A stretch of 64,000 nucleotides of DNA from Actinoallomurus bryophytorum (GTDB lineage Bacteria; Actinomycetota; Actinomycetes; Streptosporangiales; Streptosporangiaceae). Location of the stretch: NCBI RefSeq assembly GCF_006716425.1, contig NZ_VFOZ01000001.1, forward strand, positions 4,898,001 through 4,962,000. The letters run 5' to 3'. Positions 33,516-47,742 of the stretch are shown here, piece by piece (the first letter of the stretch is position 1; every line of letters starts with the position of its first letter). Position numbers and translations under genes: made by a program. The notes beneath the pieces are model-generated. The model was not told the origin of the DNA, did not search any database, and worked only from the letters and a program-made list of their open reading frames with translations.

Positions 33516-34058
33516 ATGCCAGAGGTCTCCGTGGCGGCCAGTCTCGTCACCACGCTGGGTTCGGTGCTGGCCGCTCTCGGCGGAATCGGCATGACGCAGG
33601 GGATCGGCGCGCGCAACGAACGCCGGAAGAACGAACGCCTGATGGCCGAGGAGCGCGTGCGCGCACACGACCGCACGTGCGCCGATCTCATGGCCGCGGC
33701 GAGAAAACTGCGACTGCAGATCGTGGTCACCGCGAAGATCGGCCGGTGCACGGACATGGACGTCCGGCTGTCGGCCATCCAGGAACAGGCCGCGATCGTC
33801 AACCAGCACGCCTCTGAGCTGGCGCTGCTGGCAGGCGACGCGCTCGTGACCGCCGGCCGTGACCTTGCCCGAGAGGCGGACGAACTGGCCGGGTTCGTCG
33901 CGGAGACCGCCTTGATGGACCGCGACGACACCTCGCGTGGCGTGCTCCAGGAAAAGCCCGACCTGGCGGAGTTCGAAAAGGCCCTGGACGGGTTCGAGGC
34001 CCAGGCCCGTACGGCTCAGCCCGGCGGGGCGTCCGGGTCGGGACGCAGCAGGCGCTGA
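33516..34058 (+). CDS. Hypothetical protein with N-terminal hydrophobic segment and helices
   Basis: A 180-residue protein of unknown function. Residues 5-28 are hydrophobic (VAASLVTTLGSVLAALGGIG), then a basic, charged helical stretch (ARNERRKNERLMAEERVRAH) suggests a membrane-anchored coiled coil facing the cytoplasm. It ends Gly/Arg-rich. The start ATG 33516 has no clear Shine-Dalgarno. Its last 43 bases overlap the 3' end of the convergent TPR nSTAND gene. Confidence 0.6.
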   Translation: MPEVSVAASLVTTLGSVLAALGGIGMTQGIGARNERRKNERLMAEERVRAHDRTCADLMAAARKLRLQIVVTAKIGRCTDMDVRLSAIQEQAAIVNQHASELALLAGDALVTAGRDLAREADELAGFVAETALMDRDDTSRGVLQEKPDLAEFEKALDGFEAQARTAQPGGASGSGRSRR

Positions 34059-35938
34059 ACCTCGGCCCGCTGCGGGCGCGAGAGTGGCGGGTCGGTGGCC
34101 GCACCGGCCCGGTGCGCGAGCTCGGTCGCGGCGGCGCGGTCGCCCTCCAACTCCAGGGCACGCGCGGCGTACAACAGCACCGGCCCGTTGCCGGGCGCGT
34201 CGGCGAGGGCGGCGTCGATCTCGGCATGCGCCGCGGAGTGGTCCCGCAGCGTCGCGAGCGCCAGGGCACGGGCGGCGCGGGCGACCGGCCGCCCGGAGGA
34301 CCGTACGCGGTCGAGGTCGCGCAGGGCCTCGGTGGCCTGGCCGAGATCGGCGAACAGCTCGCCGCGCGCCTGCAGCGCGTCGGGCGTGTCGCCGTTGACG
34401 GCGAGTACGTCGCTGAGCACGGCCACCGCGGTGCGCAGTTGCCCGCTGCGCGACAGGGCACGGCCGAGCTCGATCTGGAAGGTCAGGTCGCCGGGTTGCC
34501 GTCGTACCGCGGCCCGGAGGCGGTTCACCGCCTCGGCCTCGCGTTCCTGGGCCAGCAGGGTGCGGCCGACGGCCGTCAGCAGTCTGCTGACGACCTGCGG
34601 GTCGGCGAAGGTCTCGGAGAACTCCGCGGCCGTCTCGTAGTGGGACTCGGCGGCCTCGTGGTCGCCGCGCAGGAAGGCGATGTCGCCGAGGGCCGACTCC
34701 GCCTGGGCACGGGCCCGCAGGTCGTCGCCGCTGAGCCGCAGGGCTTCTTCGGCATGGCGCCGTGCCTGGTCGAAGTCGTCGTCGCCGAGCGCCTGCGTGG
34801 TCAGCATGAGCTGCTCGGCCCCGGTCGTGGCGAGTGGCGGGCCGAGGTCGGAGACGCGAAGTCCGCGGAGCGGGCCCGCCAGCCGTTCGTGCTGGAGCCG
34901 GTAGCCGTCGTCCCCGGCCTTCAGGACGTGGCGGTCCTCCAGAGCGCGCAACGCCCTCGCGGGGATGCCGGCGTCGAGGGCGGACCGCAGGGTGAGGCCG
35001 GACGTACGCCGCAGCCAGGAGATGAGGAGCCCGGCATCGACGTCGTGGTCCATGGCGGTCCGCGCCACCGCCGCACCACAGAAGTCGGCCAGCCAGCGGT
35101 CGAAGTCGGCATACCTCGTCACGTCGTCGCGGCCGATGAGCGGTGTCGCACGGGGGAGTGAGGACCACAGGCGCGAGCAGCCGACCTGCAGGAGGACGGG
35201 CTCGACGGCGGTCGCCGTGGCACCGTTCACCCCCGAGACGACCACGTCGGCGGCGCCGGCCTCGAAGGGCCGCCCGGCCGCCAGCGCGGGCCGCCGTATC
35301 GCCTCGGTCGCGGACTCACGGTCGAACGGCCGCAGGGTGAAGACGGCGGGGTCCGCCAGGCGGTATCCGTCGGCGTGCCCGTCCCGCACCGCGACCAGCA
35401 GCCGCAGGCCGGGGAGCCGGTTCAGCGCCTCGGTCAGCTCCGCGAGGAACGCCGAGCGTTCGGCCTGCCGGGCGACCGCGTCGAACAGCTGCTCGGCCTG
35501 GTCGACCACGGCGAACGCGGGCCGTCCGCCGGACTGGGCCGTCTGGGGATAGCGGCGCCGGACGAGGTCGGCGAGCGTACGGCCCGCGAGCGTGCTGACG
35601 TATTCGGCCGGGAACCACGACGCGAGGAGCGCGAGGGAGTACGGGTTGTGCGCGGGCAGAGCCGCGATCGGCCCGGACGTGGGCCGCACGAGACGCCCGA
35701 TGGGCAGGACCTCTCCGACGGATCCGGCACGCGTCAGCAGATCGGCGCTGATCAAGGACGTTTTGCCGGTGCCGGCCGCGCCGGTGAGCAGAGTCAGCGG
35801 ATTACCGCGCCATAGGGCCGCGACTTCGGAGCCCTCGCGATCGCGGCCGTGGAATTGGGCGTTCTCTTCCGCTCTAAAAGGACGAACGCCGACATACGGA
35901 ACTCGGTCCACGCCATTGGTCAGGGTGGTGACCGTCAT
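34016..35938 (-). CDS. nSTAND ATPase with C-terminal TPR array
   Basis: A 640-residue protein. The N-terminus reads YVGVRPFRAEENAQFHGRD, the usual entry to the novel-STAND NTPase group. Walker A is LTGAAGTGKTSL (~50) and Walker B AFAVVDQAEQLFD (~140). A winged-helix-like RALEDRHVLKAGDDGYRLQHERLAG follows at ~330. The C-terminal ~270 residues are TPR-like repeats (DFDQARRHAEEALRLSGDD, DHEAAESHYETAAEF and others). ATG 35938 has GGGA upstream; an 18-codon upstream extension is less likely. Proteins of this build usually sense a ligand through the repeats and switch by nucleotide-dependent oligomerisation. Confidence 0.85.
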   Translation of the reverse strand: MTVTTLTNGVDRVPYVGVRPFRAEENAQFHGRDREGSEVAALWRGNPLTLLTGAAGTGKTSLISADLLTRAGSVGEVLPIGRLVRPTSGPIAALPAHNPYSLALLASWFPAEYVSTLAGRTLADLVRRRYPQTAQSGGRPAFAVVDQAEQLFDAVARQAERSAFLAELTEALNRLPGLRLLVAVRDGHADGYRLADPAVFTLRPFDRESATEAIRRPALAAGRPFEAGAADVVVSGVNGATATAVEPVLLQVGCSRLWSSLPRATPLIGRDDVTRYADFDRWLADFCGAAVARTAMDHDVDAGLLISWLRRTSGLTLRSALDAGIPARALRALEDRHVLKAGDDGYRLQHERLAGPLRGLRVSDLGPPLATTGAEQLMLTTQALGDDDFDQARRHAEEALRLSGDDLRARAQAESALGDIAFLRGDHEAAESHYETAAEFSETFADPQVVSRLLTAVGRTLLAQEREAEAVNRLRAAVRRQPGDLTFQIELGRALSRSGQLRTAVAVLSDVLAVNGDTPDALQARGELFADLGQATEALRDLDRVRSSGRPVARAARALALATLRDHSAAHAEIDAALADAPGNGPVLLYAARALELEGDRAAATELAHRAGAATDPPLSRPQRAEVQRLLRPDPDAPPG

Positions 35939-36307
35939 GAGGGCGATCCCGTCCGATGTCGCGAGCGAGTGTGGGAGCCGGGGTCGGAACAAGCGTATTC
36001 ACCGGCTGGCGAGCCGTCGGCCGACGCTTCATGGGTATCAGGGCGGCCAGCAAGGTGGCTCGCCCTGAGAATATGGTCGGAGAAATCCACGTATAGGGCC
36101 CAGGCTCGGCGGTGACGACCGGCAAATCCTAGCCAGCTTTCGGCGGATGCCGCGACCGTTGCGGCGGACTGCCGCCACCTTGCCAGCTCCCCCCGCCCCA
36201 TCTGGCGGACGGACCCGGTGTATGCCTTGCGACGAGACGCCCCCCCGCTATCCCGTCGTATCGAATCTGATTCGGTGGACGTCGCATCGTGGTACCCGCA
36301 TCGCGGA
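35939..36307. other. Intergenic gap of ~370 bases
   Basis: Lies upstream of the TPR nSTAND gene and downstream of the fxsA-like gene. Base composition is visibly less GC-rich than flanking genes. A long minus-strand open frame crosses it but has no start with a ribosome-binding site and no recognisable motif. I see no RNA gene or clear hairpin. Confidence 0.4.
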
Positions 36308-36478
36308 TCAGATCCGGTTCTGGAACCCAGCCTGAGCGTCTCCAAGCTCGTCCTCAAGTATGCGTTCGACCGCATGCTTGAGGACGGGGCGGAGCGAGGG
36401 GTCGCGGGCAACTTCGCGAAGGGACACTTTGGCCAGATTCGCCAACCAGCCCTCGAGTGCGTCAGGGTCCTTGTACAT
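36308..36478 (-). CDS. fxsA: FxsA-like RiPP precursor peptide, C-terminus F-x-N-x-x
   Basis: A 56-residue peptide with a leader-like helical region (LAKVSLREVARDPSLRPVLK, residues 16-35, then AVERILEDELG) and a C-terminus AGFQNRI. FxS-type precursors end in Phe-x-Ser-x-x-COOH after an Ala-Gly-Phe-like stretch; here the Ser position is Asn. The radical SAM enzyme FxsB would join the Phe ring to the third residue as a cyclophane, and Asn is a known partner in related triceptide families. ATG 36478 has AGAGGAAG five bases upstream. It lies near fxsT (divergent), fxsB and the hydroxylase. Too short for routine gene callers. Confidence 0.72.
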   Translation of the reverse strand: MYKDPDALEGWLANLAKVSLREVARDPSLRPVLKHAVERILEDELGDAQAGFQNRI

Positions 36479-36836
36479 GTGCTTCCTCTGACCGTGTGTG
36501 GTGCACCCATCCAATACCTTCCCCTCTGTACGACGGGGGAACCTGGCCGGATCAGGCCGAGGCCGCTGGCGATCCATCTGCACAGCATCGCCTGTCGGAC
36601 CGTGCCAATGCATACCTGCGCAGGTAAAACTCCGTTCGTTAGGTGATGGTGATCCTTCCTTCGGTGCCCAGCGAACCGGGCCAGGTGGAGTTATTGACGC
36701 ATTAGTGGTTGCACGTGCTGTTTCAGGGATTTATGTGGCACGTGGCGGTTTGGTGGGAGGTTTGTCGGTCGTCGCGGTGGCAAGGAAACATCCCTAGGAT
36801 GTTCGCTAAAATTGTTGGCCCGGTGGAAGGCGCGCG
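36479..36836. promoter_or_regulatory. Divergent fxsA/fxsT control region with two palindromes
   Basis: A 358-base spacer of lower GC content between the divergent precursor and fxsT genes. TACCTGCGCAGGTA (36613-36626) is a perfect 14-bp palindrome. AACATCC-CTA-GGATGTT (36787-36803) is a perfect 7-3-7 inverted repeat ending 33 bases before the fxsT start. The first is placed to act on fxsA, the second on fxsT. I do not recognise either operator. Plus-strand open frames here look non-coding. Confidence 0.5.
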
Positions 36837-39437
36837 GTGACGAGTTCGCAAGAGCCCGGTTGGGGAGCGGCTCCTGAGGTCTGGGGTCGCAAGGTGCCGG
36901 GCCGTAACATCAACTTCACCGGCCGGGACGACCTGCTCAGGCAACTCCATGACAGGATCCGGACGAAGACGGCGGTTCTACCCCTTCTTGGCGACGTGGC
37001 TCCTCGCGACCCCGACGCTGGGAACTCGCTGAAGATCACCTCTCACGCGCTCCAGGGCATGGGCGGCGTTGGAAAGACTCAGCTGGTCACCGAGTACGCC
37101 CATCGTTACCAGTCGGAGTACCAGCTCGTGTGGTGGGTGCCAGCCGATCAGCCGATGCTGGTACGGCCTTCCCTAGCGGGTCTGGCGCCTTACCTCGACC
37201 TTCCGTCCGCCACAGCTACCGGCATCGGCGAGGCAGCCGACGCGGTGCTGGAAGCTCTGCGTAAGGGCGAGCCATTCGACCGCTGGTTGCTGATCTATGA
37301 CAACGTCGGTGAGCCGGAGGACCTTGAGGGATTGCTGCCGGAGGGCGATCCCGACGTCACTGGTCATGTGCTGATCACCTCACGAAACCACTTGTGGCAG
37401 GGCGTGGTCGACACGCTCCAGGTCGACGTGTTCAGGCGCGAAGAGAGCGTCGCGTTCCTGCAGCGCCGGGTGTCGGCGACGATGAGCGATACGGACGCTC
37501 ATCGTCTGGCCACCGAACTCGGCGATCTTCCGCTGGCGCTCGAGCAGGCCGGCGCGCTGCAGGCGGAGACCGGTGTCTCGGTCGATGACTACCTCGACCT
37601 GCTGAGGAAGCGCACAGCGGAGCTGATGGCCGAAAGCAAGCCGTCGGAGTACCCCCATTCGATGACGGCGGCGTGGTCGCTCTCGGTGTCCGCGTTGGGA
37701 GACAAGCTTCCAGAGGCCGTCGAGCTGCTGCGTTGTTGTGCCTTCTTCGGAGCGGAGCCGATCCCCCGCGACATGTTCCGGCGTTTCGGGCAGGGGACCA
37801 GACCATTGCTCGGCACCGTTCTTGCGGATCCGATTCTGCTCATGCGGGCCATCCGGGAGCTCGGCCGGTTCGCGCTTGCGCGAGTCGACCTGCCCAGCCG
37901 CACCATCCAGGTACACCGGCTGGTGCAGGCACTCCTTCGTGAGGGGCTTGAGGAGGCGGAGGGGGACCTCTTCCGCCGAGAAGTGCAGATGCTGCTCGCC
38001 AAGAACGCCCCCGAGGACCCGAACGACGAGGCCCATTGGTTGGGGTTCAACGAGTTGATCGCCCACGTGCTTCCGGCACGCGTGGCGGAGAGCACCGATC
38101 CAGAGGTGAGGGACTTCGCCCTCAACATGGTTCGCTACCTCTATCGGTCCGGCAACTGGGACTATGCCCGGACGTTTGTCGAGACGTTCATCGAACAGTG
38201 GAAGCGCGAGCCGGGTGCGGACCACGACCTCCGTGTTCTACAGGCACAGCGGTTCCTCGCCGACGTGCTCCGCGATGTGGGGCAGTACAACGAGGCCGCC
38301 GAGATCGACAGGTCGGTGCTCGACCGCGCTCGGCAGGCGTTCGGTAACGACGACCCCAATGTTCTGACCTTCCTGGGTGGCCTCGGCGGCGATCTCCGCG
38401 CGCTCGGCAGATTCGCCGAGGCCAGGGACCACGACGAGCTGGCACGAGACCAGCACGTGGCGCGGCTCGGCGAGGACGACCCGCGCACGTTGCGCATGGT
38501 CAACAACCTCGCTCTCGACTACGGCCTGCTCAGCAAGTATGAGGAGTCCCGCCAGCTCCACCTGGTGGCCTTCAACCAGCAGCGCCAGGCGCCTAGCACC
38601 AGTGGCGTCAACAAGACCGACGAACTGGCGTCGTGGTGTGGCCTGGCCCGGGTGGTCCGCCAGAGTGGTGCGTACGCGACGGCCCGTGACCTGGGCGAGG
38701 AGGCACTGGAGTTCGGCCGCCAGGAGCTGGGAGTCGAGAACCACTGGACGCTACGCACCAGCAAGGACCTCGCCATCGCGATGCGCCGCACGGCGGCCTA
38801 CGACGAGGCGCTGGAGATGGCGCGGGACGTGTTCGAGCGCTGCACCCGGCTGTTCGGCCGTAACAACCCGGACACGCTCGCCGCGGCCATGGGGCTGTCC
38901 AACGTCTATCGCGTGCTCGCGAGGTTCGACGAGGCGCTCGCCCTCGCGGACGACACGATGAGGCGCTACCCGGACGTGTACGGCGAGCAGCACCCCTTCT
39001 ACCTGTGCTGCATGGGCAACCTCGCGCTGCTCTACCGGGTCACCGGTGAGGCCGAACGCGCGCACGAGCTGAACACCACGTGCCTCACCGGCCTCGACGC
39101 GAAGCTCACCCGTGACCACCACTACGCGCTGACCGTCGCCACCAACCTCGCGAGCGACCGGGCCGCGCTGGGCAAGTTCGAAGAGGCACGCGAGCTCGGC
39201 GAGGACACGCTGACCCGCACCCGCACGGTCCTGGGCGAACGGCACCCCCTCACCCTGGGGTGCGCGGCCAACCTCATCATCGACCTGCGTGCCGTCGGCG
39301 CGGCGGCCGAGGCCGCGGACCTGGCCGACAAGACCTACCCCGCGTACGACGACGTGCTCGGTGACGACCACCCCGACACCAAGGTCGCGCGGGAAGGCCG
39401 GCACCTCGACTTCGACTTCGACCCTCCGCCGATCTGA
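36837..39437 (+). CDS. fxsT: FxsT-type NB-ARC/TPR protein
   Basis: An 866-residue STAND protein of the kind encoded beside FxS peptides. The N-terminus EVWGRKVPGRNINFTGRDDLL leads into an NB-ARC ATPase with Walker A GMGGVGKTQLV (~74) and WLLIYDNVGEPEDL (Walker B). The GxP motif region DLPLALEQAGAL and winged-helix segments follow. From ~430 to the end are about ten TPR units of the kinesin-light-chain-like type (HPFYLCCMGNLALLYRVTGEAERA and similar). GTG 36837 has GGAAGG upstream. The role of FxsT in the FxS system is unproven; regulation or sensing is the usual suggestion. It converges with the hydroxylase gene (6-base gap). Confidence 0.88.
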   Translation: MTSSQEPGWGAAPEVWGRKVPGRNINFTGRDDLLRQLHDRIRTKTAVLPLLGDVAPRDPDAGNSLKITSHALQGMGGVGKTQLVTEYAHRYQSEYQLVWWVPADQPMLVRPSLAGLAPYLDLPSATATGIGEAADAVLEALRKGEPFDRWLLIYDNVGEPEDLEGLLPEGDPDVTGHVLITSRNHLWQGVVDTLQVDVFRREESVAFLQRRVSATMSDTDAHRLATELGDLPLALEQAGALQAETGVSVDDYLDLLRKRTAELMAESKPSEYPHSMTAAWSLSVSALGDKLPEAVELLRCCAFFGAEPIPRDMFRRFGQGTRPLLGTVLADPILLMRAIRELGRFALARVDLPSRTIQVHRLVQALLREGLEEAEGDLFRREVQMLLAKNAPEDPNDEAHWLGFNELIAHVLPARVAESTDPEVRDFALNMVRYLYRSGNWDYARTFVETFIEQWKREPGADHDLRVLQAQRFLADVLRDVGQYNEAAEIDRSVLDRARQAFGNDDPNVLTFLGGLGGDLRALGRFAEARDHDELARDQHVARLGEDDPRTLRMVNNLALDYGLLSKYEESRQLHLVAFNQQRQAPSTSGVNKTDELASWCGLARVVRQSGAYATARDLGEEALEFGRQELGVENHWTLRTSKDLAIAMRRTAAYDEALEMARDVFERCTRLFGRNNPDTLAAAMGLSNVYRVLARFDEALALADDTMRRYPDVYGEQHPFYLCCMGNLALLYRVTGEAERAHELNTTCLTGLDAKLTRDHHYALTVATNLASDRAALGKFEEARELGEDTLTRTRTVLGERHPLTLGCAANLIIDLRAVGAAAEAADLADKTYPAYDDVLGDDHPDTKVAREGRHLDFDFDPPPI

Positions 39438-39443
39438 CCGGGC

Positions 39444-40790
39444 TCAGGGCAGCCCGGCGGCGAAGGGCAGCCGGATCTCGCCGTTGCGGTGCCGCCAGCG
39501 CGCGCGGTGGTCCTCCTCGTCCCGCCGGGCGAGCGCCGTCGCGGCCGCGGGCACCTGTTCGTCCGCCCAGCCGCGCAAGGTGCGCCGCATCCCGGTGACG
39601 AAGTCCGTCCCCTCCTCCGTCAGCCGTCCGCAGCTCAGCAACGTGCGGGTGACCAGATGCGCGGCCGCCCGCCATCGGGCGAACTCGGCGTGGGCCTCCA
39701 TCGCCGCCGTGCCGGTCTCGTGTGCGCGCTGGTGCAGCCAGAAGCCCGTCACGCCGACGTAGGCGTACGCACCCTGGAGCAGGCCGCTCGCTGGGCGGGG
39801 ATCGTCCCGCCACGACGTGTAGTAGCGGCTGCCGTCGTCGGGCCTGGTCAGGTCGACCAGCTCCAGGAGCATCGCGAGCTTGCCATGCTGGATCTCGTGC
39901 GCGAGGGTCACCGCCATCGCACGGGCGCTGGGCGGAGTGGACATCGCCGCGCAACCGATCGTGTCGCGTGCGGAGGCGCTGACCTGGCCGTGGCCGGGGG
40001 GTGCCAGGGGCGTCAGCACGCGCAGTCCGGCGCCGATCTCTCCGGCGGCCGTCGCGTGGTTCCGGACCAGCATCTCCCAAGCCGGCCCGAACGCCCCGGC
40101 CCACGCGCGTATCTCCCGCGCGTCGAGGCGGTCCGTGACGTTGTCCATCGTCGGCATGCGGTAGGGATCGAGGTCGTCGATGAGCAGGTCGAGCCGCCGG
40201 CCGCAGGACCGGGCGGTCAGCCGCCGCAGACCGCGCCAGCCCGGTGCGTCGGTGTGAGGGTCCGCCGGGACCCGCACCGTCCGTGCCCCGGTGGTGATCT
40301 CGGCGCCGTCGCCGCCCACGTGGACCACCGCGCGGCCGGGCGGGAGATCCGCGGTGCCGAGGGACGGCAGTGACAGAGGGCCGTCCTCGATGGTCACCCC
40401 GACCGCGATCCGTACGCCCGCGCGAATCGCCGCCGCGGCGGCCAGGGCCTCCAGCCGGCCGGGCGTGGCTCCCGGTGAACGGGTCTCCCCGTGGGAGAGC
40501 AGGCCGCGGACCGTACGCTGCGCCCACGCGCCGGTGGACGGGTAACGGAGCACCGTGTCGACCGCGGCGGGAGCCTTCTCCTGGAGGTCGCTGAGTACCT
40601 GGAAGCCGCGGGCCGCCTCGGCCGCCGCCGGATGCCCGGAGCGCGCGGACCGTTCCACGACACCGCGCAACAGCAGCAGCCGCTTGCTGTACTCCACGTC
40701 CGCCAACGCGGCGACGGCGGACTTCCCCCCTCCACCCGCGGCCAGCGCGGCGAACATCTCACGAGACAGCCGATGCGGTCGGAGGTTCAT
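39444..40790 (-). CDS. Putative alpha-KG HExxH-type peptide beta-hydroxylase
   Basis: A 448-residue protein with the motif TLAHEIQHGKLAMLLEL (HEIQH, ~296-300). It begins LRPHRLSREMFAALAAGGGG and carries a long helical N-terminus (EYSKRLLLLRGVVERSA). This matches the HExxH proteins linked to FxsB radical SAM enzymes, which have been classed as alpha-ketoglutarate-dependent peptide beta-hydroxylases rather than metalloproteases. The HExxH motif is intact, unlike the inactivated versions fused to some FxsB proteins. ATG 40790 overlaps the fxsB stop (ATGA). It may hydroxylate the FxsA-like peptide before or after cyclophane formation. Confidence 0.78.
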   Translation of the reverse strand: MNLRPHRLSREMFAALAAGGGGKSAVAALADVEYSKRLLLLRGVVERSARSGHPAAAEAARGFQVLSDLQEKAPAAVDTVLRYPSTGAWAQRTVRGLLSHGETRSPGATPGRLEALAAAAAIRAGVRIAVGVTIEDGPLSLPSLGTADLPPGRAVVHVGGDGAEITTGARTVRVPADPHTDAPGWRGLRRLTARSCGRRLDLLIDDLDPYRMPTMDNVTDRLDAREIRAWAGAFGPAWEMLVRNHATAAGEIGAGLRVLTPLAPPGHGQVSASARDTIGCAAMSTPPSARAMAVTLAHEIQHGKLAMLLELVDLTRPDDGSRYYTSWRDDPRPASGLLQGAYAYVGVTGFWLHQRAHETGTAAMEAHAEFARWRAAAHLVTRTLLSCGRLTEEGTDFVTGMRRTLRGWADEQVPAAATALARRDEEDHRARWRHRNGEIRLPFAAGLP

Positions 40791-42025
40791 CGCCGCCCTT
40801 CTGGGGACACGGTGTCGCGGCGGCCTTCGAGGTCGGCGGCGATCTCATGCCGGATATGGGTGATGAGACGGAACAGGTCGGGGCAGTAGACCGAGGGGTT
40901 GGCGAAGCCGTCGCCGGCGCGGTACCGATGCGGATAGAGCCCGCCGCCGCAGACGCGGCGTAACCCGCAGGCGCGGCACTCGGAGGAAAGGGCGAGCTCG
41001 CCCATCTGGCGCGCCGCGATCGACGGCAGGGCCAGTGCGTCGTCGAAGGAGTTCCGCAGGACGTGCAGGCCGGTCACTGACGCGCCGTCGTAGGCGGACT
41101 TCAGCATGTCGGACTGTTCGATGCCGCCGTCGGTCTCGACCACGACCACGCCGACCGGTGACAGGCCCACCGCCTCGCTGGACGACGTGCCGCCCAGCAG
41201 CAGCTGGATGATCTCGCTGAACAGCCGGATCTCGGTGTCCTGGCGCGGTGCGCGGTACCAGCGGTCGAAGACGGCGATCAGCCAGTCCGCGTACGGCGTC
41301 TCGGCCGAGCCCGGTTCGCGGTCCGGCGGCGGTGCGGACCAGTTGCCGTGGGGGAGGAGAAAGTCGATCTTCGGCGGGGCGTGGCTCAGCAGGGCCTCGT
41401 ACGTGGCGACCGGCGGGTTGGCGACGTCGACCGTGCACAGCAGGCCGCCGAACAGGTGCCGATGGCGTGCCGACCCGAGCGCGTCGAGTGCCCGCGCGAC
41501 CGCGTCGTGGCTGCCGCGGCCGTTGGCGTGACGACGGTGCCGGTCGTGCGCCGAGACGTCGCCGTCGATGCTGACGCCGACCCGTACGTCGAGCGCGTCG
41601 AACAGGTCCAGATAGGCGCCGAGGCGTACCCCGTTCGTCTGGATGGAGACGCCGGTCTCGACGGCCGGTCCGGCGGCTCGCCGGACCGACCGCACCGCGT
41701 GAGCGATCAGGTCGGGACCGGCCAGCAGCGGCTCTCCGCCGTGCAGGACGAGCTCGACCGAGGGCAGGTCGTGGGCCTGTACGTGCTCACCGATCCGCGC
41801 GGCGACCCGGTCGACGATCTCCGGTGACATCCGATACGGCTGATCCCGCCACCGCTGGTCCGCCATCTCGTACATGTAGCAGTAGTCGCAGGCCAGGTCG
41901 CACCGGCTGTGGATCTTGACGACGAACTCACGGAACGGGGTCGGTCGCCATCCGGTCGCGAGGAGAGCGCCGACATCGAGAGTGGCCGGCCACTCTGTGC
42001 CGGACGGCCCTCGATTGACTGCCAC
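40787..42025 (-). CDS. fxsB: FxsB-family radical SAM/SPASM cyclophane synthase
   Basis: A 412-residue radical SAM enzyme. The [4Fe-4S] motif CDLACDYC (Cys42, Cys46, Cys49) is followed by YMYEMADQRW, as in FxsB-type proteins, and LVLHGGEPLLAGPDLI (SAM-binding GGEP). The C-terminal SPASM region has ECRACGLRRVCGGGLYPHRY with a further Cys in YCPDLF. FxsB-type enzymes form a C-C crosslink from an aromatic ring to a beta-carbon two residues away. GTG 42025 is the only plausible start but its GTGAGG is very close. A promoter is visible at 42080-42109. Confidence 0.88.
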   Translation of the reverse strand: MAVNRGPSGTEWPATLDVGALLATGWRPTPFREFVVKIHSRCDLACDYCYMYEMADQRWRDQPYRMSPEIVDRVAARIGEHVQAHDLPSVELVLHGGEPLLAGPDLIAHAVRSVRRAAGPAVETGVSIQTNGVRLGAYLDLFDALDVRVGVSIDGDVSAHDRHRRHANGRGSHDAVARALDALGSARHRHLFGGLLCTVDVANPPVATYEALLSHAPPKIDFLLPHGNWSAPPPDREPGSAETPYADWLIAVFDRWYRAPRQDTEIRLFSEIIQLLLGGTSSSEAVGLSPVGVVVVETDGGIEQSDMLKSAYDGASVTGLHVLRNSFDDALALPSIAARQMGELALSSECRACGLRRVCGGGLYPHRYRAGDGFANPSVYCPDLFRLITHIRHEIAADLEGRRDTVSPEGRR

Positions 42026-42120: not shown

Positions 42121-42948
42121 CTATGTCCGGTTCACTGGTGGCCGGGCGCGGTCGACGAACTTGGTGCCGATGACGAAGTCGCCGTCGACGTTGACCTGGT
42201 CGTGGAAGTGGGTGATGGGAGACGGCGGGCGGCCGGTGTCCGGTGGCGGGGCGGCCTCGGCGACGGCCGTGCCGGGGCGTGAGCCTGCCACGTGCATCCA
42301 GGCGGTGATCTGGGACTCCTTCACCCGGAAGCTCACCTGGGTGAACGTCGCCGGGTCGAGCAGGCCCGCGTCGCTTCTGAGGGCGGTTTCGTACACGTGG
42401 GCCGAGGCCATGAACGCAAGGTCGGCCTCCGCGGCTCGCAGGGCCTCGCGCAGTGGGGGTGCGTCCAGCATGCGGGCCGTGTGGATGATGGCGTCTCCGT
42501 TCAGGCCCTCCGCGTCGCGGGACACCGGGCCCACGTGCAGGGCGGCGCGGAGCTGGATCCGTACCGGTGCGGCGGCCCGCCGGTTGTGGCGGCGCAGCTC
42601 GGCCGCCAGCAGCGCGAGCAGGGGGTCGGCCACCGCCCGTGTCGGGACCTCCGGGGGGACGATCACCAGGGCGCCGTCGCCCCGGTCCTCGTGGTAGCAG
42701 GCGGCCCACGACACGCCCGAGTCCGCGAAAGCGCCGCGTAGCAGGTCATAGAGGCGGTCGCGGACCACCTGCCGGTCGGCCTCGGTCCGTACGGGGGCGC
42801 TGAAGCCCGCCACGTCGGTGTAGAGGACCGAGCAGTTCAGCGAGGACCAGGCCGGCCGGTGCAGGGTGTCCAGCGGCCGTACCCGGGTGATGGTCAGATC
42901 GTGGCGGGCCGTGGGGACCACGCCGCGCCGTCGCCAGTTGTCGAGCAC
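42121..42948 (-). CDS. Nucleotide-cyclase-like protein with C-terminal BASS-like motif
   Basis: A 275-residue protein resembling class III nucleotidyl cyclases. LYTDVAGFSAPV carries the first metal Asp, HEDRGDGALVIVP the second (GDG), and LNGDAIIHTARML the transition-state Arg; the usual Asn of N-x-A-A-R is replaced by His. The last ~30 residues hold THFHDQVNVDGDFVIGTK (42145-42210 region), which is repeated at the N-terminus of the adjacent STAND protein. GTG 42948 has GGAGG eight bases upstream and lies five bases after the STAND stop, so the two are co-expressed. I infer a catalytic effector recruited by its STAND partner; activity is unproven. Confidence 0.72.
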   Translation of the reverse strand: MLDNWRRRGVVPTARHDLTITRVRPLDTLHRPAWSSLNCSVLYTDVAGFSAPVRTEADRQVVRDRLYDLLRGAFADSGVSWAACYHEDRGDGALVIVPPEVPTRAVADPLLALLAAELRRHNRRAAAPVRIQLRAALHVGPVSRDAEGLNGDAIIHTARMLDAPPLREALRAAEADLAFMASAHVYETALRSDAGLLDPATFTQVSFRVKESQITAWMHVAGSRPGTAVAEAAPPPDTGRPPSPITHFHDQVNVDGDFVIGTKFVDRARPPVNRT

Positions 42949-42953
42949 GTGGC

Positions 42954-45900
42954 TCACCTCCGTTGTCGTCGTTTTCGTGCGGGGAACTCGGCGGTACCGC
43001 CGGCACAGGTGGCCGTCCGCGGCGGCGTCACGCGGTCCGTCATGGAGGTCAGGCACTGCCGGGCCTCCGCCGCGCCCTCCCCGTTTCCGGTCCGCTCGCA
43101 GGCCGTCATCGCCTGGGCGAAGTACTCCCTCGCCGGGTCCCGCAGGGACAGCGCCCAGTGGATCCTCCCGAGCTGGAGCAGGCTCAGGCCCCGTCCCCAC
43201 TCGTCGCCGACGTCGGTCTGGATCTCCAGTGCGCCCAGTGCGTGGTGGCGGGCCTGCTCGTGTTCGCCGGCCTGGCCGTGGATGCGGGAGATGTTGTCGA
43301 GCGTGTCGGCGGTGCCGCGCCGGTCGCCGATCTCCTCGCGTACGGTGAGTGCCCGCCGAGCGTAGGAGCGTGCCTGGTCCAGGTCGCCGGTCCGTCGCAT
43401 CAGCCGTGCCATGGTGTTCAGGCAGTCGCCCTCGCCGTGCCGGTCGCCGATCTCGCGGCGCAGGGCCAGTGCCTCGGTGACGAGGTCCAGCGCGGAGCGG
43501 TAGCGCCGGTAGAACCGGTGGATCCGGGCCATGAGGTCCAGGACCTCGCCCTGGCCGTGCAGGTCGCCCGTCTCGCGCCGGATGCGCAGCGACTCCCGTG
43601 CGTTGGCCAAGGCCGTCTCCTGGTCGCCGAGCCGCCAGCGCGCGTGGGCGAGTGTGCACAGGCTCTCCGCCTCCCCACGCCGGTGGCCGATCTTCCGGTG
43701 CAGGGTCAGGGCCTGTTCGGCGAGGGCCACCGCGCGTTCGTTGCGGCCCAGCCGGCGGTGGCAGCGCGACAGGGTGTCCAGCGTCTCGGCCTGGCCGCGG
43801 CGGTCGCCGAGCTCGGTACGGATGCGCAGCGCCCGTTCGGCGTAGCCGAGTGCCTTCTCGCAGCGCCCGAGCAGGTAGTTGGTCCGCGCGAGGTTGTCCC
43901 ACGCGCCGCTCTCCGCGCCCCGGTCGCCGATCGTCTGCTGGATCTGGATCGCCTTGCGCGCGTGCCGGACGGCCTTCAGGTACGCCGCCTGGTAGCGGGA
44001 GACGGTCGCGAGCGCGTTGAGGGTACGGCCCTCGGCCGCGAGGTCGCCGATGCCGCGTTCGATGCGCAGCGCCGCCGTGAGCCGGTCCAGCGCGGTGGAG
44101 TAGCGGGCCGAGCCGCAGTGGATGAGCCCGATCGTGCGCAGAGTCTCCGCCTCGAAGTACGAGTCGCCGGCCGCCCGCTGGATGCCGAGGGCCAGGTCCA
44201 GGTCGCGCAGGGCGTCCTCGTGGTGGCCCAGGTGCCAGTGCACGCGCCCGATGAGCGCCAGTGACTCCGCCTCACCCGCCCGGTCGTCGATCTCCCGCTT
44301 GATGCGCAGAGCGTCCCGCGCGATCCGCAGCGCCTCGGAGTACCTGGCCTGCCTGCGGTTGATGTGGGCCAGAGTGAGCAGGTCGTCGCTCTCGCCGTAC
44401 CGGTCACCGGTGCGCCGGCAGATCGCGAGGGACTCCAGTGCGCAGGCACGCGCCCGGTCATAGCGCGCCGACCGGGAGAAGACGCGGGCGAGGACGTAGA
44501 GCGTGTGGCTGACCCCGCCGAGATCGCCGATCTCCCGCTGGATGGCCAGTGCCTCCTCCGCCCGTGCGCGTGCCTTGTCGTAGGAGCCCTGGTGCCAGAG
44601 GATCTGCGCCATCATCGCGGTGCTCTCCGCGATGCCGCGTCGGTCCCCCGTCTCCTGGCGGATCCACAGCGACTCCTCGACGTGCGCGGTGGCCTCGCGG
44701 TACTCCGCTCTGCGGATGTGGATCTGCGCCAGGACGTCCAGCGTCACCCCCTGCCCGGACCGGTCGCCGATGTCGCGCTGGCGGCGGAGCGCCGTCCTGG
44801 CGTTCTCCATCGCGCCCCGGTTGTCGCCGGTACGGCACTGGATCCGCGCGATGGTGCCGTGGCTCTCGCCGACGCCGAACCGGTCGCCGCTCTCGCCGCG
44901 GATGGCGAGCGCGGCACGCGCGTGGGCGAGGGCGGCGGCGTACTCGCCGGCGCTGCGCTCGATCTCGGCGAGGTTGTTCAGTGACTCGCTGAGCCCGTAC
45001 CGGTCTTTCATCTCTTTCTGCAGGTCGCGTGCGTGCTCGGCGTCGCGCCGTGCGTCGGCGTGCCGCCCGAGCCGGTGTTCGACCATGGCGATGGTGTTGA
45101 GCGCCGAGGCCACGCCGTACCTGTCGCCGATCCGCCGCCGGATCGCCAGGGCACGCTGCGCATGGCCGATCGCCTCGTCGTACTTTCCGGAGTCGTGCTG
45201 GATCGTGGCGATCGTCGCCAGTGACTCACCCTCCCGGTGCTCGTCGGAGATCTCCTGGCAGATCCGCAGCGCTTCGAAGGCGCTGCGGAGCGCGGCCGGG
45301 TAGTCGCCAAGCTTGCGCAGGATGTGCGCCCGGCTGCACAGGCTCATCGCCATCCCGGCGAGGTCGCCCACGTCCTCGCGGATGCGCAGGGCGTCTCCCG
45401 CGCAGCGGAGCGCGTCCGCCGAGCGGCCCAGCCGCCGGAGCACGCGGGACAGGGTGTCCAGCGCCTCTCCCTGCCCGCGGCGGTCGCCGATCCGTTCGCG
45501 TACGGCGAGCGCGCGCTCGGCGTACCGCAGCGCGGGGGCACAGCGGCCCAGCCGGCGCAGCGCGCGCGAGACCGTCTCCAGCGCGTCGGCCTCGCCGGGC
45601 ACGTTGGCGAGCGAACGGTGGATGCGCAGGGACTCGCGGGCATAGCCCAGCGCCACGCGGTAGCGCGACTGCCGCCAGTGGACCTGCGCGATCTTCTCCA
45701 GGCCCTCGGCGACGCCGTGCCGGTCGGCGGCCGCGAAGAATATCTTCAAGGCCTTGGTGCCGTGTTCGAGTGCCTTGTCGTAACGGCTGCGCGAGCGTTC
45801 GACCCGGGACATGGTGTTGAGCGCCCAGCCCGCCCGCAGGTGTTCGTCCAGCTCCGTGAAGATCTGGTACGCGGCCTGGGCGTCCTGTGATGCCTCGGCG

Positions 45901-47453
45901 TACCTTCCCAGGTCGCACCGTACGACGGCGAGATGGTCGAGCATCAGCGCCTCGGACCAGCGGTCACCGGCCGAACGCGCCGCCGCCAGGCCGAGCTCGT
46001 GGATCTCGATGTTGTCGCTGTTGTGCCTGCCGCGCCGCAGGAACGCGAACAGTGCGTCGGCCAGCCCCCAGGCCAGCGCCCATTCGCCCATCCGTGAGGC
46101 CTGCCGGGTCGTGGCGACCAGGCCGGCGCGTTCGGCGTCGAACCAGGCCAGGCACGCCTCGATGCCGCCCGCCGGGGCGAGCGCGGCCGGCACGTCGAGA
46201 GGGCTCGCCGGCTTCTCGCCCAGTGCCGCCGCGGCGGTGCGCGCGGAGGTCAGGTACCAGTTCTGCAGCCGCCGGATCGCCGCGTCGCTCTCTCCGCCGT
46301 CCTCGATGGCGAGCCGCTCACCGGCGTACTCCCTGAGCAGCTCGTGCAGTCGCAGGCGGCCGGGCGTGCGCTGCTCGACCAGGTGCTTGCGGACCAGCCG
46401 GTAGGCGAGCCGCCGTGCCGCCGGGACGGACAGGTCGAGCAGCGCGGCGACGCTCTCCACGCCGAAGTGCGGGCCCGGGATGAGGCTGAGCATCCGGAAG
46501 GCGCGGCGCTGCTGGAAGTCGAGGTTCTCGTAGGACACGGCGAAGGCGGAGCGGATCGCCAGGCTCGGGTCGCCGTCGATCTCCAGCGTGTCGAGCCTGG
46601 CGCCGGTCAGCTCCTCGACCAGCTCGGCCACCGAGCAGAAGGGCCCCGTCGCCAGCCCGGCGGCCGCGATCCTGATGGCCAGCGGCAGCCGCGCGCACGA
46701 CTCGGCCAGGTCGGCCGCGGCCTGCGGCTCGGCCTCACTGCGCTCGGCGCCGAGCAGATGCCTGGTGAGCTCACGTGAGTCCTCGAAGGAGAGCGGGTGG
46801 ACGGGCACCGAGATCGCGCCGTACCGGGCGACCAACCCCGCCAGGTGCGTGCGGCTGGTGACCACGACGAGGCAGCCCGCGCCCCCGGGCAGCAGCGGCG
46901 TGATCTGCTCGGCGCTCGCGGCGTTGTCGAGGACCACCAGGACCTTGCGGTCCGCGAGCAGGGACCGGTAGAGCGCGGCACGCGGCACCTCGTCGGCCGG
47001 AATGTCGACGGAGGCCATGCCGAGGCCCTGCAGTAGCCAGAACAGCATCCGGTTCGGCGGCAGCGCCCGCTGGGCCGAGGGGCCCTGCAGGTCGAGGAAG
47101 AGCTGGCCCCCGGGGAAGCTGCCCGCCGTCCGGTGCGCCCACTGGACGGCCAGTGAGGTCTTGCCGACCCCCGCCATGCCGTGGATCTCCACGACGGTGA
47201 CCGACGAGCGCGAGCCGGCCGAGCGCAGTGCGGCGTCCATCGCCGACAGCTCCGCCTCCCGGCCCACGAACGTGTCCGGCGCCATCGGCAGCTGCCAGAT
47301 CGGCGGCGCGATCCGTGGCGCGGCCTGATGGACCACCTTGACTCCGGCGATGAAGTCCCCCTGGGTCCTGACCGGACCGTGAAACCATGTGCCTCCTCGT
47401 TCCATCGCGTACCCGTCCCCGCCCGAACGCAGGTCTTCTTCGTCCCGCTTCAT
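42954..47453 (-). CDS. Giant NB-ARC STAND protein with long TPR array and N-terminal BASS-like motif
   Basis: A 1499-residue NLR-like protein. Residues ~22-44 contain TWFHGPVRTQGDFIAGVK, matching the C-terminus of the cyclase-like neighbour. The NB-ARC follows FVGREAELSAMD: Walker A EIHGMAGVGKTSLAVQWA (~90), VLVVLDNAASAEQITPLLPG (Walker B), VVTSRTHL and LPLAIRIAAAGL. A winged helix follows (VRKHLVEQRTPGRLRLHELL). The remaining ~1050 residues are about 26 TPR units of 40 residues with a strongly repeated IGDR-x-G core, visible as a 120-base period in DNA. ATG 47453 has GGGAG upstream. The array is the presumed ligand sensor. Confidence 0.88.
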   Translation of the reverse strand: MKRDEEDLRSGGDGYAMERGGTWFHGPVRTQGDFIAGVKVVHQAAPRIAPPIWQLPMAPDTFVGREAELSAMDAALRSAGSRSSVTVVEIHGMAGVGKTSLAVQWAHRTAGSFPGGQLFLDLQGPSAQRALPPNRMLFWLLQGLGMASVDIPADEVPRAALYRSLLADRKVLVVLDNAASAEQITPLLPGGAGCLVVVTSRTHLAGLVARYGAISVPVHPLSFEDSRELTRHLLGAERSEAEPQAAADLAESCARLPLAIRIAAAGLATGPFCSVAELVEELTGARLDTLEIDGDPSLAIRSAFAVSYENLDFQQRRAFRMLSLIPGPHFGVESVAALLDLSVPAARRLAYRLVRKHLVEQRTPGRLRLHELLREYAGERLAIEDGGESDAAIRRLQNWYLTSARTAAAALGEKPASPLDVPAALAPAGGIEACLAWFDAERAGLVATTRQASRMGEWALAWGLADALFAFLRRGRHNSDNIEIHELGLAAARSAGDRWSEALMLDHLAVVRCDLGRYAEASQDAQAAYQIFTELDEHLRAGWALNTMSRVERSRSRYDKALEHGTKALKIFFAAADRHGVAEGLEKIAQVHWRQSRYRVALGYARESLRIHRSLANVPGEADALETVSRALRRLGRCAPALRYAERALAVRERIGDRRGQGEALDTLSRVLRRLGRSADALRCAGDALRIREDVGDLAGMAMSLCSRAHILRKLGDYPAALRSAFEALRICQEISDEHREGESLATIATIQHDSGKYDEAIGHAQRALAIRRRIGDRYGVASALNTIAMVEHRLGRHADARRDAEHARDLQKEMKDRYGLSESLNNLAEIERSAGEYAAALAHARAALAIRGESGDRFGVGESHGTIARIQCRTGDNRGAMENARTALRRQRDIGDRSGQGVTLDVLAQIHIRRAEYREATAHVEESLWIRQETGDRRGIAESTAMMAQILWHQGSYDKARARAEEALAIQREIGDLGGVSHTLYVLARVFSRSARYDRARACALESLAICRRTGDRYGESDDLLTLAHINRRQARYSEALRIARDALRIKREIDDRAGEAESLALIGRVHWHLGHHEDALRDLDLALGIQRAAGDSYFEAETLRTIGLIHCGSARYSTALDRLTAALRIERGIGDLAAEGRTLNALATVSRYQAAYLKAVRHARKAIQIQQTIGDRGAESGAWDNLARTNYLLGRCEKALGYAERALRIRTELGDRRGQAETLDTLSRCHRRLGRNERAVALAEQALTLHRKIGHRRGEAESLCTLAHARWRLGDQETALANARESLRIRRETGDLHGQGEVLDLMARIHRFYRRYRSALDLVTEALALRREIGDRHGEGDCLNTMARLMRRTGDLDQARSYARRALTVREEIGDRRGTADTLDNISRIHGQAGEHEQARHHALGALEIQTDVGDEWGRGLSLLQLGRIHWALSLRDPAREYFAQAMTACERTGNGEGAAEARQCLTSMTDRVTPPRTATCAGGTAEFPARKRRQRR

Positions 47454-47742
47454 GGCCACTCCCGTCCGTGTGCCACTACTGCGACCGGAACAGGACAGAC
47501 CTCCGGCGCTGTGTCACTCGCCACGGAACCAAGTCGTGCGATGCGGTGGACTTGGTTGCGCCTCCGACAGGGCGCACCCCGCGCCGATGACGAGCTGGAA
47601 CTCCGACCCCCGTGTTCCGGTCCGATACAGGCAGGAGAACACGCATGAGTCCTCGAACCAGCGGGTGGCCCAATATCCGTACAAGGCCGTACACGCGTCT
47701 GCTCGGTCCGCGACCCGTTCGTCACCATGGGTGAGAGGGATC

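What the first reader, a model, noticed from the sequence alone, without database searches (positions are those of the whole stretch)
36308..42025. FxS-type RiPP locus with an FxNxx precursor and a separate HExxH hydroxylase
A 56-codon gene encodes a leader plus AGFQNRI-COOH, close to the F-x-S-x-x-COOH signature but with Asn in the Ser position. Nearby are fxsT, an FxsB-like radical SAM/SPASM enzyme (C42/C46/C49) and a stand-alone protein with an intact HEIQH. The predicted product is a Phe-Asn three-residue cyclophane, possibly beta-hydroxylated. Precursor and maturases are split around fxsT, so pipelines that expect adjacency may miss the peptide.
Basis: partly seen in the sequence, partly recalled or inferred. 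Interest (0 to 1): 0.85.

Follow-up and report, generated by a model that had tools for sequence, protein, structure and literature searches.

The report
Asparagine-variant cyclophane peptide gene cluster
A soil actinomycete carries a small-peptide gene with its tailoring enzymes, where the residue expected to be stitched into a ring is asparagine instead of the textbook serine; this swap turns out to be a recurring natural variant of a known peptide system that sits among immune-like ATPase genes.

Summary
On the minus strand, 36308-36478 encodes a 56-residue peptide ending AGFQNRI; fxsT, a stand-alone HExxH gene and fxsB lie beside it. TIGR04268 misses the peptide, but an FxsA profile built without its close relatives picks it alone among 768 window ORFs (E 1.6e-7). 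A second genome of the genus has the same locus with AGFTNRV. So it is an FxsA-type precursor with Asn at the cross-link acceptor position, most likely made into a Phe-Asn three-residue cyclophane (inferred). It is not a singleton: among 117 FxsB rows with an assigned core the acceptor is Ser 60, Asn 27, Ala 19, Gln 6, Asp 3, Thr 2. The layout around fxsT (93 of 120) and the separate HExxH gene (106 of 112) are the norm in this sample. Asn does not depend on the hydroxylase: a paralog in the same genome (AGFQNRM) keeps only a HExxH remnant. Unexpected extra: fxsA is followed, same strand, by an nSTAND1-TPR gene in 85 of 120, with a SIR2-like gene in between in 43 of 120, pointing to a conflict or signalling role. 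Verdict: real, a variant of a known kind.

The parts
36308..36478 (-). FxsA-type precursor peptide, 56 aa, core AGF-Q-N-R-I
   Evidence: same gene in L013/L177 (AGFTNRV), paralog in L045 (AGFQNRM)
36837..39437 (+). FxsT: NB-ARC NTPase with TPR repeats
   Evidence: NF040586 974.9 bits (cut-off 300); NB-ARC and TPR in Pfam
39444..40790 (-). Stand-alone alpha-ketoglutarate HExxH-type peptide beta-hydroxylase candidate (HEIQH)
   Evidence: TIGR04267 159.9 bits (cut-off 40); phmmer to solved chains 22nu_A E 2.2e-42 and ChlH 8s5f_A E 2.5e-4
40787..42025 (-). FxsB radical SAM/SPASM cyclophane-forming enzyme candidate; overlaps the HExxH gene by 4 nt
   Evidence: TIGR04269 477.8 bits (cut-off 370); phmmer to ChlB 9gm3_A E 9e-81
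34016..35992 (-). nSTAND1-TPR NTPase gene directly downstream of the precursor (the conserved part begins near 35935)
   Evidence: Pfam nSTAND1 E 9.9e-28; 71% identical gene in the ortholog locus; co-directional neighbour of fxsA in 85 of 120

Best explanation
An Fxs-type RiPP locus. The 56-residue precursor has a recognition leader (LANLAKVSLREVA...VL..AVERIL) and a C-terminal core F-Q-N-R-I. FxsB is recruited through the leader and joins the Phe ring to the beta-carbon of the residue two further on, here Asn, giving a three-residue cyclophane (-2 Da). The HExxH enzyme then probably adds a beta-hydroxyl (+16 Da) on a residue I cannot name. The product is probably tied to the STAND NTPases encoded around it (FxsT, and the nSTAND1-TPR gene in the precursor's own direction) as a signal or regulator in a conflict system. 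Shown by sequence: gene identities, homology of the precursor, Asn in the ortholog, layout. Inferred: cross-link, hydroxylation, function.
For: FxsB, FxsT and HExxH pass curated cut-offs. The precursor is found by a profile without its close relatives and aligns along its length with the ortholog at the syntenic place. The Phe column is 90% or more invariant in 120 precursors; X1 is F in 112 of 117 rows. Precedent in PMC11002830 (passages): MscB (IPR026335, which I recall to be the FxsB family) links Phe C4 to Ser C-beta; XncB and OscB link Phe C4 to Asn C-beta; HaaB links His to Ala. Precedent for hydroxylation by a HExxH enzyme on a pre-formed cyclophane in PMC12636437 (passages).
Against: TIGR04268 does not recognise the peptide. 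Its leader has drifted from the usual IDLSG-like motif, and the first seed profile missed it. I found no experiment that shows an FxsB-family enzyme accepting Asn. Of the 8 best FxsB residue associations with the acceptor, none reached p 0.05 at the median of the independent-pairs test, mostly for want of pairs, so specificity cannot be read from sequence.
Confidence: 0.78

Rival explanations
1. The precursor is decaying: Asn replaces a needed Ser and the leader has lost its recognition motif, so the locus makes no product.
For: Leader drift and no TIGR04268 match. Loci of this genus do decay: L172 (Ser core) has its fxsB match in two frames, which may also be a sequencing error, and L045 has lost most of HExxH.
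Against: The four genes are open in the window; the ortholog keeps Asn, Arg and the frame; 27 of 117 rows have Asn, with 19 changes at least on the tree.
Confidence: 0.1
2. The HExxH protein is a zinc peptidase that frees the C-terminal peptide rather than a hydroxylase.
For: Zincin-like motif; Kaur et al. 2020 read the zincin-like gene of these systems as a metallopeptidase (PMC7159879, passages); PflC shows peptidase activity without the leader (PMC12636437, passages).
Against: Over the cut-off of TIGR04267, named a beta-hydroxylase; sequence match to ChlH (E 2.5e-4), which hydroxylates Asp and His per PMC12636437.
Confidence: 0.12
3. The 56-codon ORF is a chance ORF and the true precursor lies elsewhere.
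For: Curated models do not call it.
Against: Sole significant hit of the profile without close relatives among 768 window ORFs; conserved in the ortholog, with paralogs in the same genome.
Confidence: 0.02

Closest known systems
FxSxx-COOH / FxsB system (TIGR04268, TIGR04269, NF040586); MscB of IPR026335
   Same: FxsB, FxsT, HExxH, leader-type precursor with Phe-x-X3 near the C-terminus, same gene order as 93 of 120 precursors surveyed
   Different: X3 is Asn, not Ser; the precursor is missed by TIGR04268
XncB / OscB triceptides (Phe-Asn cyclophanes)
   Same: Predicted Phe-Asn three-residue cyclophane (chemistry from passages of PMC11002830)
   Different: The enzyme belongs to the FxsB family: XyeB model 112.9 bits (cut-off 450), GrrM/OscB model 80.5 bits (cut-off 310); that XncB is of the XyeB family is recalled
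ChlB / ChlH
   Same: Radical SAM enzyme plus alpha-ketoglutarate HExxH enzyme acting on one peptide; sequence matches 9gm3 and 8s5f
   Different: Described as a fusion (PMC12636437, passages); here two separate genes and a short single-motif core
Standalone actinobacterial peptide-processing systems with AP-ATPase-TPR (Kaur et al. 2020, PMC7159879, passages)
   Same: Zincin-like gene, FxSxx-type peptide, radical SAM/SPASM, NTPase with TPRs
   Different: Here the precursor is also paired with an nSTAND1-TPR gene, and in relatives with a SIR2-like gene; the term SIR2 has 0 occurrences in that paper's main text as held

Membership tests
FxsB maturase (TIGR04269) | Score over curated cut-off 370; CxxxCxxC | tested here: met
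   477.8 bits; C42/C46/C49
FxsT (NF040586) | Score over cut-off 300 | tested here: met
   974.9 bits
aKG-HExxH beta-hydroxylase (TIGR04267) | Score over cut-off 40; intact HExxH | tested here: met
   159.9 bits, HEIQH
FxSxx-COOH peptide (TIGR04268) | Score over cut-off 28 bits | tested here: not met
   no hit up to E 10 (subject to HMMER's filters); not in the genome list (150 of 659 candidates scored)
FxSxx-COOH peptide (TIGR04268) | Ser at the third core position | tested here: not met
   FQNRI; Asn also in ortholog L013/L177
FxsA-type precursor in the wider sense | Leader and core homologous to other FxsB-linked precursors | tested here: met
   profile without the window clade E 1.6e-7, next 0.39
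Triceptide (three-residue cyclophane RiPP) | C-C bond between aromatic ring and C-beta of residue i+2 | not testable with these tools
   needs MS and NMR
Known anti-phage system (PADLOC-DB 2.0.0) | Match to a specific model of a described system | tested here: not met
   at E 1e-5 only a general TPR model (FxsT and the NB-ARC-TPR protein) and a viperin model at 33.9 bits for FxsB

The most novel reading that the evidence does not exclude
FxsB-type enzymes tolerate, and evolution repeatedly exchanges, the cross-link acceptor (Ser, Asn, Ala, Gln), because the strained peptide is a variable internal ligand that arms or restrains the co-encoded STAND NTPase (and, in relatives, a SIR2-like NAD-cleaving enzyme): a RiPP used as the trigger or safety pin of an immune-like module.
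Probability: 0.22. Interest if true: 0.8.

Novelty: new variant of a known kind. Interest (0 to 1): 0.45.

Why it matters
The family name fixes Ser, yet in this sample Ser holds 60 of 117 acceptor positions, and the standard model matches only 72 of 120 precursors at E 0.01. Near-matched natural pairs (L045 AGFQNRM and L054 AGFQSRI; window AGFQNRI and L172 AGFQSRV) give a ready test of FxsB tolerance. The co-directional nSTAND1-TPR and SIR2-like genes make the unknown role of these peptides testable.

Tried and rejected
Asn linked to loss of HExxH: 7 of 11 rows without HExxH have Asn against 20 of 106 with it, but the tree offers only 7 independent pairs on well-supported branches: on average 3.6 in favour, 0 against, 3.4 without difference, median p 0.125. 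A lead, not a result.

FxsB residues that predict the acceptor: best Fisher p 5e-6 among 2502 tests (A118 to Cys, with Asn), but of 13 independent pairs 1.8 on average went with it, none against and 11.2 did not differ. Of the 8 best associations that I put to this test none reached p 0.05 at the median. Undecided, not shown.

A palindrome upstream of the precursor (ACCTGCGCAGGT, 36614-36625): of 12 loci scanned, only the window has it and L177 has it with one changed base. Not pursued.

HExxH protein in phage records: no match. PADLOC models: nothing specific. The single genome-contig scan with the HExxH protein gave one locus, L013.

Papers: the main triceptide papers (Nguyen 2020, Sugiyama 2022, Morishita 2024) were not among the listings, some of them capped; I saw them only as citations. 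Whether FxN or FxA precursors of FxsB are already in print is therefore open. In PMC12281569 the passages shown were reference-list entries.

Full report
Place. The window lies in a 9.47 Mb genome (G000, contig C1). The closest fxsB among the genomes searched (78% identity) is in G052:C90, same genus; the locus L013, on a contig of the same length titled Actinoallomurus sp. RYN_226, carries the identical peptide and is taken to be the same contig (L177). The host is therefore probably an Actinoallomurus.

The genes. Minus-strand 36308-36478 encodes MYKDPDALEGWLANLAKVSLREVARDPSLRPVLKHAVERILEDELGDAQAGFQNRI. fxsT, HExxH and fxsB pass their NCBIfam cut-offs. HExxH carries HEIQH and matches solved chains 22nu_A (E 2.2e-42) and ChlH 8s5f_A (E 2.5e-4); FxsB matches ChlB 9gm3_A (E 9e-81). 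fxsB and HExxH overlap by 4 nt, so they are probably coupled (sequence).

Is the peptide real? TIGR04268 gives nothing, and a first profile of 16 FxS peptides missed it. A profile of 107 FxsA rows, without L177, L172, L045 and the window, finds it alone: E 1.6e-7, next 0.39, among 768 stop-to-stop ORFs of 30-220 aa. One caveat: the rows were gathered in rounds whose profiles had included that clade. The ortholog has the same layout and a peptide ending AGFTNRV; score 74 against a shuffle maximum of 25, leader alone 45, reached by 0 of 1000 shuffles. Against own-genome paralogs the leader alone is weaker: 1 of 1000 (L045) and 28 of 1000 (L044).

Own-genome paralogs. Three FxsB genes pass the cut-off. 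The one at C1:2.406 Mb (L044) pairs with AGFQSKI; the one at 4.883 Mb (L045) with AGFQNRM and only a C-terminal HExxH remnant (residues 326-442 aligned). So Asn does not need the hydroxylase.

Survey. FxsB was found in 122 of 200 genomes of the family draw (E 1e-60) and 9 of 296 of the phylum draw (E 1e-100), the window's own genome counted in each. I fetched 134 loci (120 from the best listed family hits, 8 phylum, 6 genus); with the window, 135. The sample leans to FxsB genes like this one and holds near-duplicates. Precursors came from an iterated profile plus nine added by eye. Core triplets were read by eye; 117 of 139 FxsB rows got one, 22 did not. X1: F 112, H 4, Y 1. X3: S 60, N 27, A 19, Q 6, D 3, T 2. 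Fewest changes on a FastTree tree: 41 for X3, 19 for Asn against the rest; in a count without L172, X1 3, X2 50, X3 39. No shuffle control was run on these change counts. Of 119 precursors with a placed core, 43 end exactly FxSxx and 12 exactly FxNxx; 76 have two residues after X3, 3 fewer and 40 more. TIGR04268 matches 72 of 120 at E 0.01, and 16 of the 28 with Asn.

Close natural swaps. L045 (FQN, HExxH remnant) and L054 (FQS, HExxH intact) are sisters with local support 100; the window (FQN) groups with L172 (FQS; only part of its fxsB used, frame broken) at 95, and these with L177 (FTN) at 97. Asn codons are AAC or AAT; 24 of 61 Ser codons are AGC or AGT, one transition away.

Layout. In 93 of 120 precursors fxsT lies between fxsA and fxsB on the opposite strand; 16 have no fxsT between and 11 have no fxsB on the same strand. 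HExxH is intact in 113 of 135 loci; of the 22 others at least three (L129, L140, L155) lie at contig ends. In 106 of 112 loci that could be judged HExxH and FxsB are in separate frames, in 6 in one.

Surroundings. Downstream of fxsA on the same strand lies an nSTAND1-TPR gene: in the window, in the ortholog at 71% identity, and within 3 kb in 85 of 120 precursors (117 of the 120 have over 1.5 kb held downstream); 3 matches lay on the opposite strand. In 43 of 120 a SIR2-like gene stands between (the L046 copy matches PF13289 at E 1.4e-28). Its TNYD Asn and HG His are invariant in 43 of 43; that these are the catalytic residues is recalled. Its aligned end lies -27 to 60 nt from the aligned NTPase start in 45 pairs; one locus with the SIR2-like gene, L115, had no nSTAND1-TPR match. 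The window has no SIR2-like match. Upstream of fxsB lies an NB-ARC-TPR gene (42954-47459) with a sub-cut-off match to HaaT, 594.7 bits against 1125. Kaur et al. 2020 (PMC7159879, passages) placed FxSxx peptides in NTPase-driven conflict systems and proposed a toxin or signal role. A search for papers with at least three of SIR2, STAND NTPase, RiPP and radical SAM found none.

Conclusion. A real FxsA-type precursor with an Asn acceptor, most likely made into a Phe-Asn cyclophane. Phe-Asn cyclophanes are known from XncB and OscB (PMC11002830, passages); in the passages I read, the FxsB-family enzyme tested (MscB; family membership recalled) used Ser. The finding is a variant within a known kind; the new value lies in the breadth of the acceptor position and in the SIR2/nSTAND1 linkage. 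Function, cross-link and hydroxylation site are untested.

Noticed in passing
window 34016-35992 (-); L046:13719-14600 as an example of the middle gene: fxsA is followed on the same strand by an nSTAND1-TPR gene in 85 of 120 precursors, and by a SIR2-like gene in between in 43 of 120, with invariant Asn and His.
   Followed up: partly
L051:3384-3593, L052:3310-3519, L110:2903-3157, L134:7184-7585: FxsA-like precursors with His in place of Phe (AGHQSSV, LGHDSSI, VGHQDST) beside FxsB-like enzymes.
   Followed up: no
L045:7982-9609: HExxH reduced to a C-terminal remnant beside fxsB and an Asn-type precursor in the window's own genome; Asn is frequent among rows without HExxH (7 of 11) but not significant on the tree.
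   Followed up: partly
L093:13366-15176: Three FxsA-like precursors in a row (endings FNSSI, YSSSI, FGSSI).
   Followed up: no
L167:8948-9187: Precursor with a repeated GNFNSFI core, possibly two cyclophanes.
   Followed up: no
window 42954-47459 (-) and 42121-42909 (-): A 1501-aa NB-ARC-TPR protein with a sub-cut-off match to HaaT, and a small protein without a Pfam or NCBIfam match; both have close relatives at L172 (73% and 67%), the small one weaker relatives at L131 and L160.
   Followed up: partly
window 36614-36625: Palindrome ACCTGCGCAGGT upstream of the precursor; L177 has it with one changed base.
   Followed up: partly
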